Shown here: piece after piece, positions 10,589-50,872 of the stretch
Position numbering within the stretch: the first letter of the stretch is position 1
How the letters are laid out: each line of letters begins with the position of its first letter
Assembly: GCA_001600175.1 (NCBI GenBank)
Contig: BCJC01000003.1
Span: forward strand, 1,054,001 to 1,118,000
From: Erythrobasidium yunnanense
Taxonomy: Eukaryota > Basidiomycota > Cystobasidiomycetes > Erythrobasidiales > Erythrobasidiaceae
DNA: 64,000 nt
Direction of reading: 5' to 3'
The notes under the pieces: model-generated
The model's database searches: none
Told to the model about the DNA's origin: nothing
What the model saw: only the letters and a program-made list of their open reading frames with translations
Position numbers and translations under genes: made by a program

Positions 10589-11487
10589 ATGACCATTCCG
10601 GGCATCAAGAACCCCGCTCTACCTTATGACAGTCTCATAGTTGTTACAGGATGTAGCGGCTTCGTTGGGTCGCACGTAGCTGATCAAGTACTCGCTGCTG
10701 GCTTCAGAGTGCGCGGGACCACACGCGACGCGGAGAAGAACAAATGGGTGAAAGAGTACTTAGAAGACAAGCATGGACAAGGACGCTTCGAGCTTGTATC
10801 GGTGCCGAACCCAGACAGCGAGGATGCATTCAAGACCGTCGTACAAGGTATGCTCTGCTGAAGTCCGTACGAGAGAACTGTCGGCTGAGAGACAGAACAG
10901 GCGCGCAAGGCTTTGTACACGTCGCGCACGACATGACTGGCGGCCCTCCTGATGAAGCCATCCCTGCTTCTGTGAAGATGGCCGTGAATGCGCTCAAAGC
11001 AGCCTCCAACGCCGGTATCAAGCGATTCGTATATACGAGCAGTTCTTTCGCCGTGACCCAGCCCAAGCCCAATGTCAGCTTCACGGTTGACGAAAGCACA
11101 TTCAACGAGGATGCCTTACGTGCTGTGAAGGAGAAGGGTGCAGAATGCGAAGGTGCAAGCGTATATTCAGCTAGTAAAGTAGAGGCGGAACGAGCCATGC
11201 AGAAATGGAAGGATGAGAACGGAGCGGACATTGTCATCAACTGTGTCAATCCCAATGCGAACCTTGGACCAGTCTTACAGCCTCAGCATCAGGGCTACCG
11301 TTCCACATCAGGCTGGGTGAAGAATCTCCTAGATGGGAAATACGACCAGCTCAATCGGCCCCAAGAACATTTCATCAACGTAGTAGATGATGCGAAGCTG
11401 CATGTCATAGCTTTGGTGCACCCAGATCTTCAAGGAAGACGCTTGATAGGCATGGCTGAGCGAGCGCCGATCAGCAAGATTGTATAG
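10589..11487 (+). CDS. NAD(P)-dependent short-chain reductase (extended SDR, Gre2/DFR-like), apparently truncated
   Basis: Extended short-chain dehydrogenase of the dihydroflavonol/aldehyde reductase group. Exons 10589-10847 and 10901-11487; intron 53 nt; 281 aa to the TAG at 11485-11487. Seen: Rossmann motif VTGCSGFVGSHV near residue 18, the strand-4 region FVHVAHDMTGG, the catalytic YSASKVEAE (YxxxK), and NPNANLGP. Oddity: the frame is still coding after the TAG for 57 more codons to a second stop at 11659-11661, and that tail (RKVYPERKFEDFEDEGED ... GHGYTSLEESI) is what the family C-terminus looks like; the expected full length is about 338 aa. So the gene carries one nonsense codon, or the base is a sequencing error, or there is readthrough. 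Substrate unknown. Confidence 0.8.
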
Positions 11488-42090: not shown

Positions 42091-42975
42091 TCAACGCTTG
42101 ACCAGCCTGAGATAGCCTTTATCGTTGTACTCGACAGCATATCGGCTCTTGAACTGCTCTATCGCCTGCATGCGTGCCATCTCGCTACCGTAATTCCCAT
42201 GCTGTGTCTTGGCAAGATGATGAAGGCGCATCCGATCCTTCTTGTCGAAGAAGTCGTAGTTCTCGTATTCTCTCCCGTTTTCACACACTATGACGATCTG
42301 GAAAAAGGGGATACAGTCTCTCAACTCTCGTTTATTGTCGCGGACAGAAGTGATCTTGACGACCTTCTTTCGGTAGTGGGCGCCATGAGCTTGTGTAAAA
42401 GGTATAGTTCCCGTGATCGTTCTGTCGATTGCAGGTCGAGACGGCTCAACGCCTTTGCCGGCGCCGCAGCCGTACTCGAGCATCTTAGGCTTGTATTGTA
42501 GCAGGCAGTTACGATCCTCGAGGAATGTAGGATACTCCTTTTGGAAAGCATCTACAGCGGCATCAGAGACATCTTGCTGTGTACCTGCCTGCCTAAGCTT
42601 GTTCGCCAGCGACATCAGGACTTTCTGATCTTTCGCATTGCTGAAGAGTTTGGAGTGGAAAGCTTCGCCAGAGCTGACTATTTCTAAGCCTCTGCGGTTC
42701 TCCACGAGCCTGACTCCGGTGATCCAGCGACAGTATGCATTTCTGCAGTCGTAAAGGCCACCATCTTCATTGTAGAAGTGGGCTTCGGTTCCCAGGAGTC
42801 TGTTGTCAGGGATCTCTACACTGAACCTGGACGAGCCTGATACTGCGCTTGTATTGGATGCGGTAGAGGCTGAAGAGGATTTGCGCGAGAGACCCTCGCC
42901 CCGGCGAGCATTGCTGGAATTTGACGATATGGAAGCTCTTGCTACGCTTGAGATCTTTGTTGTCTTCGAGTTCAT
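42091..42975 (-). CDS. unknown protein, tandem pair member A
   Basis: Single exon, 294 aa from ATG at 42975 (MNSKTTKISS). Family not recognised. A Ser-rich leader of about 65 residues precedes a folded domain: RFSVEIPDNRLLG, YDCRNAYCRWITGVRLV, FHSKLFSNAKDQKVLMSLA, YPTFLEDRNCLLQYKPK, DRTITGTIPFTQAHGAHY, FFQIVIVCENGREYENYDFF, RMRLHHLA, and ends RYAVEYNDKGYLRLVKR. The frame is open to 43071, but that upstream part begins with a donor-like gtgagc and lacks ATG, so it is likely a leader intron. About half the residues are shared with member B. No catalytic motif seen. Confidence 0.65.
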   Translation of the reverse strand: MNSKTTKISSVARASISSNSSNARRGEGLSRKSSSASTASNTSAVSGSSRFSVEIPDNRLLGTEAHFYNEDGGLYDCRNAYCRWITGVRLVENRRGLEIVSSGEAFHSKLFSNAKDQKVLMSLANKLRQAGTQQDVSDAAVDAFQKEYPTFLEDRNCLLQYKPKMLEYGCGAGKGVEPSRPAIDRTITGTIPFTQAHGAHYRKKVVKITSVRDNKRELRDCIPFFQIVIVCENGREYENYDFFDKKDRMRLHHLAKTQHGNYGSEMARMQAIEQFKSRYAVEYNDKGYLRLVKR

Positions 42976-43370: not shown

Positions 43371-44270
43371 TCATCGCTTAATGAGCTTGAGGTAGCCTTG
43401 GTCGTTATATTCGATCGCATATCTCTTCCTGAATTGCTCGAATGGTTTATCCCGTTTATACTTCTCGATCAGGCCCAGGTGCTGGAGTCTCATCTGATCT
43501 ACTCTGTCGTGGAAGTCGAAATTCTCGAACTCCTTGCCGTCTGAACAGACCAGCACGAATTGGAAGTTGATGATATATCCGCGAACCGAGCGTTCACCTT
43601 CCCGCATAGACTCGATTTGGACAATCTTCTTTGGGTAGTTTGCACCATAAGCTTGTGTGAAGGGTATCTTGCCCGTGACTGTTCTTTCAATAGTAGGGCG
43701 AGACCATTCCGTGAACTTATTGGCACCGTACCCGTATTCAGTTCCTTTAGGCTTGTGGATGAGGAGACATCGAGCGTCTTCGATGAATGCCGGGTACTCT
43801 TCTTTGAATGCATCAATAGCGGTGTTGGCGAGCTCTGGCTTTATTGTCGCTCGACGAAGCTTGTGAGCGAGATTAAGAAAGACTTTCTGGTCATTTGCGT
43901 TTATGAAGAGCTTGGAGTGGAATCCTTTGCTACCGCTAAGTACCTCCAGAGCCTTGCCATCATCAGCAAGCCGGGCGCCGGTGATTCTGCGGCGGTAAGG
44001 ATTTCTACAGCCGTAGTACATGGCGCCGACATCCACATTGAGGTATGCATCAGAGCCCCACAATTCGATCTCAGGTATGTCTACGCTGAACTTGGAGGCC
44101 CCGGAGCGAGCACTGGACTTCGACGAAGTAGAGGCCGACGATGAGGCTGTGGATGAGCATGTGGATGAGTATGTGGAGGAAAATGACCCTTTTCGAGTGT
44201 CTTTGCGAGAAATGGAAGATGATGTAGATGCAGTGCGTCCTTGTAGCGCTTTGTTCGCTTTGGACGTCAT
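43371..44270 (-). CDS. unknown protein, tandem pair member B
   Basis: Single exon, 299 aa from ATG at 44270 (MTSKANKALQGR). Same architecture as member A: Ser/Thr-rich leader, then KFSVDIPEIELWG, YGCRNPYRRRITGARLA, FHSKLFINANDQKVFLNLAH, YPAFIEDARCLLIHKPK, ERTVTGKIPFTQAYGANY, NFQFVLVCSDGKEFENFDFH, MRLQHLG, and RYAIEYNDQGYLKLIKR. Conservation extends evenly through the domain to the last residue, so both copies appear maintained. No signal peptide, no membrane span. Family unknown to me. Confidence 0.65.
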   Translation of the reverse strand: MTSKANKALQGRTASTSSSISRKDTRKGSFSSTYSSTCSSTASSSASTSSKSSARSGASKFSVDIPEIELWGSDAYLNVDVGAMYYGCRNPYRRRITGARLADDGKALEVLSGSKGFHSKLFINANDQKVFLNLAHKLRRATIKPELANTAIDAFKEEYPAFIEDARCLLIHKPKGTEYGYGANKFTEWSRPTIERTVTGKIPFTQAYGANYPKKIVQIESMREGERSVRGYIINFQFVLVCSDGKEFENFDFHDRVDQMRLQHLGLIEKYKRDKPFEQFRKRYAIEYNDQGYLKLIKR

Positions 44271-48545: not shown

Positions 48546-48963
48546 AAGCCGGCTGCTTAGTCTTTGCAGCTCACCTATCATACGTCCATCTATGTTCTTC
48601 GGACAGGATAGCAGGGAGTTCGGCAGCTATCCCGCATTATGTGGTGTATCTCTTAGTAGCAGTACCACAACTAGTTGATGTATCATAAGATAGCTTTTCT
48701 CACACTTCAGTTGCTGTAACACGCTGCTTTCTTTCTTTCTTTCTTTCTTTCCTTACATCGCAGGCTCATAAATCTAATCAACCACTATCTTGCTGATATC
48801 CCGATACTCTCGTTTGTCACCTCGAATAGCTTGTCTCGCACCGCCTGTCCCAAACTTCGTCAGCATGCGGCATCTATGATAGCGGACCAGGCCATCGCGC
48901 GAGCTTGTCCTGCTGGCTTGTCCTGACTCTGCAGCTTGTCCTCTTACCAACATCGTCTGAATA
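48546..48963. other. intergenic region with TTCT microsatellite
   Basis: About 418 bp between CSN7 and the split oxidoreductase locus. A (TTTC)n tract of five to six units lies at about 48728-48752. No gene seen. Confidence 0.55.
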
Positions 48964-49141
48964 ATGGCTACCATCCTGCTCGCTGGAGGGACTGGACTGA
49001 TAGGCAGCGTCGTGCTCGAGACAGCTCTGGCCTCGTCGAGAGTTGCGAAAGTGTACAGTCTGCAGCGAAGACACCTCCCCGATACGCATGCTCAGAAGAA
49101 GAATTTCAAACTGCATGAGCTCGTTCTCGAAGATCCAGCTG
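48964..49141 (+). pseudogene. N-terminal half of an atypical NAD(P)-binding oxidoreductase (fragment N1)
   Basis: Starts MATILLAGGTGLIGSVVLE (Rossmann GxxGxxG), continues SRVAKVYSLQRRHLP and KLHELVLEDP, the first 59 codons of an atypical SDR resembling Fmp52-like proteins, then stops being gene-like at a palindrome centred on 49141/49142. Beyond the centre the sequence is the reverse complement of fragment N2. The matching C-terminal half on this strand begins only at 50273. As it stands the frame ends shortly after, near 49191, so it cannot make the full enzyme. Confidence 0.75.
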
Positions 49142-49319
49142 CCTTTGGATCCTGGAGCACCAGCTCCTGCAGTTTCTTGTTGCCCTTGTGAACATGATGC
49201 TCTGGAAGACTTCGTCGCTGTAGGCTGTACAACCTTGAGATTCGCGATGAAGCCAAAGCGGCCTCCAACACCGCGCTGCCTATCAAGCCTGTAGCGCCTG
49301 TAAGTAAGATGGACGCCAT
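49142..49319 (-). pseudogene. N-terminal half of a paralogous oxidoreductase (fragment N2)
   Basis: Mirror image of N1: from ATG at 49319 it reads MASILLTGATGLIGSAVLE, SRISRLYSLQRRSLP, KLQELVLQDP and reaches the same palindrome centre after exactly the same length, 178 bases. It is a diverged paralog, not an exact copy. Its C-terminal half should lie to the left on this strand but is not there; the only minus-strand C-terminal half lies to the right, at 49617-50272. Confidence 0.75.
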
Positions 49320-49616
49320 GCTACAAAGGAGTAAGAGTTGGAGAAGAAGTGGGACGAGTTCAGCTCATCAGATGGTGTTCATTTTGGCGCCGGAGGTCGA
49401 CGCGAGTCGTATCGGCAAAGTCAGCCAAAGCAAGCTGAGCAGAAAGTACCAAACATGTTGTGCTCTGTCAATGCAGAAGGAAGGAGAGCGTCGTGTCGAT
49501 TGCAATCTCGATCCATTTCAGGCTTGTAAATTAGTGCGAGCGAGACAAAGCAGGACCAGATAACTACGATGAAGATATAGCGACAACATGAGTAGCTTTC
49601 CTTGTAGATCTCCTCC
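49320..49616. other. spacer inside the rearranged oxidoreductase locus
   Basis: About 297 bp between fragments N2 and C1, both read leftwards. In the inferred ancestral order this was the intergenic DNA between two tandem genes. No coding signal. Confidence 0.5.
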
Positions 49617-50272
49617 TTATTCTGTTGGCAAGGCCATTACTTCTCTTACGCCGTACGTAGGCTGAGGCGATCCATCCAGTGCGACCTTGAGCAGCTGCTT
49701 CGAGAGCTTTGGGACTGGATGATTGATGACGCCGATCGCTTCCATGAGTGGAGTAAAGGTAGCATTGATGAAAGACGAGCTTGATCTCCACGCTACGAAG
49801 ATCCTAAATATCCCCAGTTCTAGCGTGGGCGAGGCGTTTCCCGATGCTGCTGCATCCTCCGCCTTCTGCGCGTCGTTAATGGATAGAAGTGCTGTCTCTA
49901 CTGCTCCTCGCATCTTGCGATACTCCGGCAGCCACCACAGCTTTGCCTCTTGGTCCTGTACGGTCCCTATGGCTGAGATGTATACGAAACGAAGAGGAGT
50001 ATCTGGAGGTGTAGAAGAAGAAGAATCTGTGTTTGCGGATGATCTCTCTTTGCGCAGAGCAAGGAGCGTGTTCAGAGCATGCGTGCTGAAATGCAAATTG
50101 ACGCGACGAGTCTCTTCTGAGTCCTTGTCTTTGGATGGATTCACGCCAAGACACCTGTCAATACAATCATTTGAGCGTGTCCTACGTTGATCAACGACGT
50201 CGCCCGCTCACCAGATACATCCATCCACGCTTTTCAGCTGATCGCGGACTTGGGCAGGCCAGGCCGTCCAAG
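49617..50272 (-). pseudogene. C-terminal half of the oxidoreductase (fragment C1)
   Basis: Two coding blocks, 50272-50212 and 50154-49617, with an intron at 50155-50211. Reads WTAWPAQVRDQLKSVDGCIW, then CLGVNPSKDKDSEETRRVN, LRFVYISAIGTVQ, KLWWLPEYRKMRGAVE and ends PTYGVREVMALPTE. This continues the SDR fold from the substrate-binding half and is open throughout. It starts at a palindrome centred on 50272/50273 that it shares with C2. No N-terminal Rossmann half precedes it on this strand. Confidence 0.75.
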
Positions 50273-50279
50273 CTTGGAC
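50266..50279. repeat. perfect palindrome at C1/C2 junction
   Basis: GTCCAAGCTTGGAC, centred on 50272/50273, is the exact symmetry point of the C1/C2 inverted repeat. It reads VQAW on both strands. The companion centre of N1/N2 symmetry is at 49141/49142 (GATCCA ... TGGATC at 49132-49151). Confidence 0.85.
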
Positions 50280-50872
50280 AAATTGGCCGATGGATATCCG
50301 AGCGCAGCTGAAGAATATCGATGGCTGTATCTGGTATGTACAACGCTAGCAACATCCAGGAAGCGAGCTTAAAACAATATATTCAGGTGCCTGGGCGTAG
50401 TTCCTTCTAAAAACCAAGATATCCAACAGACGCGAACGGTGTCCGTAGACTACACGGTGCACGCACTAAAGACCCTCCTCTCCTTACGAGACGACATAGG
50501 ACAAGACTCAGCTTCGTCTGTCCCTCCGCTGCGGTCATCTACCTTTCGGGATCAGGCGTCTCGTCGGACCAAGATGCCAAACTGTGGTTCTTCTCAGAGT
50601 ATCGGAAGATGCGAGGACAGGCAGAGAATGAGCTTCTATCAATCTCCACGGAATACAACGGAGACAGTGCTTCAGCCAACAAGGTGGAGCTGGGAATCAT
50701 GAAACTCGGATTCGTGCGACCTCAATCTACACTCAACAGCGTGTTGGCTATAATCGGCGTCACCTCACATACAACGGATAAGCTCTCGAAACAACTCGTC
50801 AGACTCGCGCTAGATGGCTCTCCTCAGTCTGTATACCGCACTGGGGAGGTTATGACTCTGCCGACAGACTGA
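50273..50872 (+). pseudogene. C-terminal half of the paralogous oxidoreductase (fragment C2)
   Basis: Mirror image of C1: WTNWPMDIRAQLKNIDGCIW, then after an intron at 50334-50386 CLGVVPSKNQDIQQTR, ALKTLLSLRDD. The intron lies at the same codon and phase as in C1, proving common origin. Between the SSVPPLR and VIYLSGSG segments (about 50525-50545) the frame shifts by one base, so this copy has decayed; the rest reads KLWFFSEYRKMRGQAE to YRTGEVMTLPTD. It also lacks its N-terminal half nearby. Confidence 0.75.

What the first reader, a model, noticed from the sequence alone, without database searches (positions are those of the whole stretch)
48964..50872. Two tandem oxidoreductase genes cut at the same site and rearranged into interlocked palindromes
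Order on the plus strand is N1(+), N2(-), C1(-), C2(+). N1 and N2 mirror each other about 49141/49142 with equal 178-base arms; C1 and C2 mirror about 50272/50273, at a perfect 14-bp palindrome, and share an intron at the same codon. Inverting 49142-50272 restores N1-C1 followed by N2-C2, two complete tandem genes whose joins read sensibly (EDPA then WTNWP-type sequence). Thus a 1131-bp inversion seems to have broken both paralogs at exactly homologous points. Ordinary recombination between direct repeats would delete, not invert, so the mechanism is unclear; a reversible switch is conceivable but unproven.
Basis: partly seen in the sequence, partly recalled or inferred. Interest (0 to 1): 0.8.

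Follow-up and report, generated by a model that had tools for sequence, protein, structure and literature searches.

The report
Inversion broke two tandem sister genes
In what looks like a fungal chromosome, a short stretch of DNA seems to have flipped over and cut two neighbouring sister enzyme genes at the same point in each, probably killing both; it resembles what gene scissors do to tandem genes in the laboratory and is a curiosity rather than a working switch.

Summary
Order is N1(+), N2(-), C1(-), C2(+). With 61-nt arms, the mirror axes at 50272/50273 and 49141/49142 are the two best in the window. Turning 49142-50272 back rejoins N1-C1 and N2-C2 in frame. Restored N1-C1 reads as one collinear oxidoreductase: an NCBIfam SDR model runs through the join at 31.0 bits, against 18.1 for N1 alone and 14.4 with C1 reversed, and a Streptomyces relative aligns through the join. 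So a 1131-bp inversion most likely broke two tandem paralogues at one homologous base. Corrections: C2 has a frame change, so the second gene is not intact; the 14-bp palindrome is a by-product of joining two copies of CTTGGAC head to head. The segment ends are not inverted repeats (20 of 60 identical), against a switch. Best explanation: two double-strand breaks and exact end joining with the middle piece reversed, recently. Engineered nucleases do this to tandem genes (PMC3789795, PMC10460964; passages read). Why both breaks hit one homologous base is open: chance (about 3 in 778 per inversion) or a shared cut site with a self-complementary GC overhang. No fungal relatives or reads were available.

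The parts
48964..49141 (+). N1: first 59 codons plus one base of SDR-like paralogue 1; the present reading frame runs on to a stop at 49189-49191 (75 aa)
   Evidence: Pfam Epimerase 19.4 bits, just below its cut-off of 20.9
49142..49319 (-). N2: first 59 codons plus one base of SDR-like paralogue 2, now reversed
   Evidence: Pfam Epimerase 21.5 bits
49140..49142 (.). left inversion junction (N1|N2), ambiguous over a GC dinucleotide
49320..49616 (-). 297-bp former intergenic stretch between the stop of gene 1 and the start of gene 2, now reversed; no clear similarity to 300 bases upstream of N1 or downstream of C2 (best match 13 nt, E 0.25)
49617..50272 (-). C1: second part of paralogue 1 with a 57-nt intron (50211-50155), open to a TAA stop
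50271..50273 (.). right inversion junction (C1|C2), inside the 14-bp palindrome 50266-50279
50273..50872 (+). C2: second part of paralogue 2 with a 53-nt intron (50334-50386); frame change between about 50490 and 50537

Best explanation
The locus was a tandem pair of SDR-like (NAD(P)-binding, Rossmann-type) genes, N1-C1 and, 297 bp on, N2-C2. Two double-strand breaks fell at the same homologous dinucleotide (GC, at the left edge of an 8-bp block GCTTGGAC shared by both paralogues). The 1131-bp piece between them was rejoined the other way round by end joining, with no sign of a gained or lost base. Both genes were parted from their second halves and are very probably dead. The event is recent compared with the duplication. 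Shown: geometry, frames, register of the two restored genes, collinearity of restored N1-C1 with an SDR model. Inferred: direction of the change, the double-break mechanism, loss of function, age. Not explained with confidence: why both breaks hit the same homologous base.
For: The two axes rank first in the window. Both restored joins are in frame and in register with each other. NCBIfam NF006532 matches restored N1-C1 at residues 3-168 with 31.0 bits, against 18.1 for N1 alone, none for C1 alone and 14.4 for N1 with C1 exactly reversed; N2 alone has no listed NF006532 match, N2 with the first part of C2 has one at 17.9 bits over 3-107. A Streptomyces plasmid gene aligns with restored N1-C1 through the join, ungapped over query 42-63. 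The reversed piece has a stop (C1) and a start (N2) 297 bp apart, as in a head-to-tail pair. dN is far below dS on both sides of the break (N: dN 0.25, dS 1.9, 59 codons; first 55 codons after the break: dN 0.31, dS saturated; last 39 codons: dN 0.30, dS 1.1). N1, N2 and C1 hold no stop in 317 codons; in simulation that has probability 0.17 at 5%, 0.03 at 10%, 0.005 at 15%, 0 of 400 at 20% and 1 of 400 at 30% neutral divergence. Two nuclease cuts in tandem paralogues give such inversions in Arabidopsis and poplar.
Against: No relative with the uninverted pair was found: 2 scans of viral contigs and 2 of prokaryote genomes gave 0 confirmed loci, and neither collection is one of fungi. The own genome is not held. 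No reads were available, so a chimeric assembly is not excluded. Random breaks seldom coincide: 1 of 778 positions of gene 2, or 3 of 778 within one base (arithmetic), and end joining often trims ends (small deletions at many inversion junctions, PMC3789795), yet none is seen here. The Streptomyces alignment has a 4-residue gap 4 residues after the join, so exactness rests on the register of the two paralogues. Weaker profile results: Pfam Epimerase gains only 2-4 bits from the second half, reversed controls 0.4-1.4; Pfam NAD_binding_4 gains nothing (N2: 19.4 joined, 19.5 alone, 20.1 with the control); TIGR01746 does not gain either (N1 16.5 alone, 13.1 joined; N2 25.7 alone, 25.1 joined). The 31.0 bits are far below that model's cut-off of 330.
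Confidence: 0.7

Rival explanations
1. Replicative template switching: the nascent strand jumped from gene 1 to the opposite strand at gene 2, copied back through the spacer and C1, and jumped forward again.
For: Both junctions share a 2-bp microhomology (GC) and no base seems lost. Inverted template switching and foldback are described in yeast (PMC10766183, PMC10622511; search listing and start of abstract only).
Against: Needs two jumps that are exactly reciprocal and does not explain why the first landed at the homologous base; 2 bp is little homology.
Confidence: 0.12
2. Aberrant processing of a recombination joint: the paralogues paired as direct repeats, the four-way junction was cut in both directions and the loop was rejoined reversed.
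For: Would place both breaks at homologous positions without a sequence-specific nuclease; the break lies at the edge of an 8-bp identical block.
Against: The paralogues are only about 67% identical near the break (160 of 239 nt, longest identical run 12) and the event looks recent, so pairing by homology should be very rare.
Confidence: 0.07
3. Assembly or library artefact: chimeric inversion in reads or contigs.
For: No reads could be seen; C2 carries a frame change, which a sequencing error could also give.
Against: Identity at the junctions is 2 bp, far too short for an assembly overlap; two reciprocal junctions without loss at the same homologous base would need two matched chimeras. A second tandem pair about 5 kb away (42091-42879 and 43371-44144, 64% identical) stands in ordinary direct order.
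Confidence: 0.08
4. Reversible switch: the 1131-bp segment flips to turn the two genes on and off.
For: Both restored joins are exact and in frame, so flipping back would rejoin the coding parts.
Against: Segment ends are not inverted repeats: 20 of 60 positions identical, shared core 2 bp. No recombinase family was hit in the 20 of 35 long window ORFs that were scanned with Pfam; the rest were not scanned. The second gene has a frame change and would stay broken.
Confidence: 0.03

Closest known systems
[quoted passage not shown] passages read) and poplar (PMC10460964; passages read)
   Same: A cut site present in tandem paralogues is cut more than once and a piece between cuts is rejoined reversed; gene parts then face each other and the genes are broken.
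   Different: There the nuclease was supplied and aimed at the paralogues; in Arabidopsis many junctions had small deletions. Here the event is apparently natural, the paralogues share only 8 bp at the break, and both junctions look exact.
End joining of SPO11 double cuts in mouse meiosis (PMC12918824, preprint; passages read)
   Same: Two breaks a short distance apart are end-joined; SPO11 leaves 2-nt 5' overhangs, the length of the ambiguity here; local inverted insertions, perhaps from double-cut fragments put back in reverse, are reported.
   Different: The inverted insertions there showed microhomology at one breakpoint, and 0 of 13 insertions in Mre11-deficient mice were locally inverted, which speaks against joining of unresected ends as the route. 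No link to homologous positions in paralogues was seen in the passages.
Small inversions in fungal genomes (mesosynteny; search listing only)
   Same: Inversions are a known part of fungal genome change.
   Different: I know of no case with breakpoints at the same base of two paralogues (recalled, not tested).

Membership tests
SDR / NAD-dependent epimerase family (protein) | N-terminal GxxGxxG nucleotide-binding motif (motif recalled) | tested here: met
   GGTGLIG and GATGLIG; Pfam Epimerase N2 21.5 bits over its cut-off of 20.9, N1 19.4 just under, restored N1-C1 22.2
SDR / NAD-dependent epimerase family (protein) | Collinear match of the catalytic domain in the restored protein | tested here: inconclusive
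   NF006532 3-168 at 31.0 bits across the join, with controls lower, but far under that model's cut-off of 330: superfamily level only
Site-specific invertible switch | Inverted repeats at both ends of the segment | tested here: not met
   20 of 60 identical, core of 2 bp
Site-specific invertible switch | Both orientations occur | not testable with these tools
   no reads, no isolates, own genome not held
Double-cut inversion of tandem genes | Head-to-tail paralogues with both breakpoints at homologous positions | tested here: met
   tandem ancestry inferred from the restored order
Double-cut inversion of tandem genes | A sequence-specific cut at the shared site | not testable with these tools
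   only an 8-bp shared block and a self-complementary GC seen

The most novel reading that the evidence does not exclude
The two breaks coincide because one agent cut the same short site in both paralogues and left a self-complementary 2-nt GC overhang, so the freed piece could be ligated exactly in either direction. A topoisomerase-like cutter such as SPO11 would fit the overhang length. Tandem paralogues would then be prone to exact inversions, not only to deletions, wherever they share a self-complementary dinucleotide at a cut site (25 of 238 homologous dinucleotide steps here).
Probability: 0.13. Interest if true: 0.65.

Novelty: new variant of a known kind. Interest (0 to 1): 0.42.

Why it matters
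Tandem paralogues are expected to delete or convert one another, not to invert. An apparently natural inversion with both breakpoints at the same homologous base and no lost bases is what engineered nucleases make. If more such cases exist, they would be a footprint by which natural double cuts followed by end joining can be read from finished genomes.

Tried and rejected
Rejected: the palindrome as a pre-existing recombination site; it consists of the 7 bp CTTGGAC of C1 and of C2 joined head to head, and perfect palindromes of 14 bp or more occur 3 times in the window. Rejected: rescue by splicing N1 to C2 over the reversed piece; the three donor-acceptor pairs that keep CIWCLG in frame need introns of 1086-1140 nt, and each product leaves the C2 frame after the frame change. 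Rejected by reasoning: divergent or convergent ancestral order, because the spacer joins the stop of C1 to the start of N2.

Led nowhere: viral-contig scans (5 and 182 pattern matches, 0 confirmed) and prokaryote-genome scans (146 and 31 pattern matches, 0 confirmed). The PDB gave weak hits, all to the N-terminal part (1, E 0.91; 4, best E 0.036). Rfam and tRNA scans were empty. The bacterial promoter scan is not meaningful here. Paper searches for a natural precedent: one search found 2 papers, 18 found 1, 19 found 10, 31 found 22 (12 listed), 40 found 0; by listing none described one, but most were not opened.

Dropped or weak rows: one block of the dN/dS run (36 codons, 'Cb1') was out of register by one codon and is not used; coding stretches with gaps between C1 and C2 were not used either. 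In C1, about 49775-49835, alignment to C2 needs gaps of 17 and 1 nt, so the protein there is uncertain although C1 stays open. The N2 control was hand-typed from reversed C1 with small typing differences, not from reversed C2; the N1 control there and the control are exact reversals.

Full report
Setting. No genome is held for this window, and ARAGORN and Rfam at gathering thresholds found nothing in it. Short introns and genes such as Sec39, a CAND1-like HEAT protein, a PCI-domain protein and an ABC transporter suggest a fungus; that is inference.

Observation. N1 (48964-49141, +) and N2 (49319-49142, -) are both 178 nt and match at 119 of 178 positions without a gap. Among even axes, the one between them is the best of 63,645 for 178-nt arms; for 61-nt arms the two axes of the finding rank 1 and 2 of 63,879 with 41 and 40 matches, next 31, and odd axes reach at most 31. 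C1 (50272-49617, -) and C2 (50273-50872, +) match from the second axis on and carry introns of 57 and 53 nt at the same codon. DNA repeat and self-blast searches at their settings missed most of this; tblastn shows it.

Restored order. Turning 49142-50272 back gives GATCCAGCTG|CTTGGACGG and GATCCAAAGG|CTTGGACAA, both in frame. The two restored sites match at 40 of 60 positions. Three cut pairs fit equally, a 2-bp ambiguity over GC. The 14-bp palindrome arises because both paralogues have CTTGGAC right after the break.

Were the halves ever one gene? The N halves match the start of Pfam Epimerase. The restored N1-C1 protein matches NF006532 over residues 3-168, through the join at residue 59/60, with 31.0 bits and E 1.9e-7. 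Controls: N1 alone 18.1 bits, C1 alone none, N1 with C1 reversed 14.4, N2 with C1 20.0. N2 with the first part of C2 gives 17.9 bits over 3-107, and N2 alone no listed match to that model. Other models help less. Pfam Epimerase: N1 alone 19.4, N1-C1 22.2 whole or 23.7 shortened, control 20.8; N2 alone 21.5, N2-C2 23.6, control 21.9. NAD_binding_4 and TIGR01746 do not gain from the second half. Among 72,556 plasmid records, 3 hold a weak match to restored N1-C1 at E up to 1, each spanning the join (query 17 to 172 or 173; E 4e-3, 8e-3, 6e-2). The best of these, a Streptomyces gene annotated as epimerase/dehydratase family, aligns at 46 of 170 identities, ungapped over query 42-63, with a 4-residue gap just after. 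So the halves very probably belong together. That no base was lost rests on the two paralogues being in register.

State of the pieces. N1, N2 and C1 are open over 317 codons. C2 changes frame between about 50490 and 50537. Neither gene can now make a whole protein; each N half runs into a 75-residue reading frame. dN is far below dS in the three blocks used (59, 55 and 39 codons; dS is near or at saturation). Absence of stops suggests neutral divergence of roughly 10% or less since the inversion. The frame change in C2 may be older or younger than the inversion, or a sequencing error.

Mechanism. The best explanation is two double-strand breaks and end joining with the middle piece reversed. 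Recombination between paralogues about 67% identical is disfavoured. The lack of any lost base, together with the GC that reads the same on both strands, fits a cut with a self-complementary 2-nt overhang; 25 of 238 homologous dinucleotide steps have such a shared dinucleotide, so this alone is about a 1 in 10 coincidence. Coincidence of the two break positions is 1 in 778, or 3 in 778 within one base, for a second break placed at random in gene 2 (arithmetic). Many windows were presumably read in the first stage, so this is not a corrected probability.

Precedent. In Arabidopsis, zinc-finger nucleases cut tandem genes and gave inversions, many with small deletions at the junctions, and the authors note that inversion of a two-gene array is likely to destroy both genes (PMC3789795, passages). 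In poplar, one guide RNA gave inversions and opposed gene fusions in a tandem array (PMC10460964, passages). SPO11 double cuts in mouse can be end-joined, with 2-nt 5' overhangs; inverted local insertions there showed microhomology at one breakpoint, and 0 of 13 insertions in Mre11-deficient mice were locally inverted (PMC12918824, passages), which tells against the simplest SPO11 version. I found no report of a natural inversion with both breaks at the same base of tandem paralogues in the searches, judged by listing only.

Switch. The segment ends share only the GC core (20 of 60 positions) and the second gene would stay broken by its frame change. A switch is not supported.

Noticed in passing
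window 42091-42879 and 43371-44144: A second tandem gene pair (both ORFs on the - strand), 64% identical at DNA level, in ordinary direct order; no Pfam family for either.
   Followed up: partly
window 49775-49835: Stretch of C1 that aligns to C2 only with gaps of 17 and 1 nt; C1 stays open but the protein there is doubtful.
   Followed up: no
window 12445 and 17279: Perfect palindromes of 16 and 14 bp, centred after these bases.
   Followed up: no
window 48727-48751: CTTT microsatellite of 6.2 units upstream of N1.
   Followed up: no
window 10684-11487: Another epimerase-family gene (Pfam Epimerase 37.8 bits, residues 89-249) whose frame before that looks unrelated, perhaps an intron or a frame change.
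   Followed up: no
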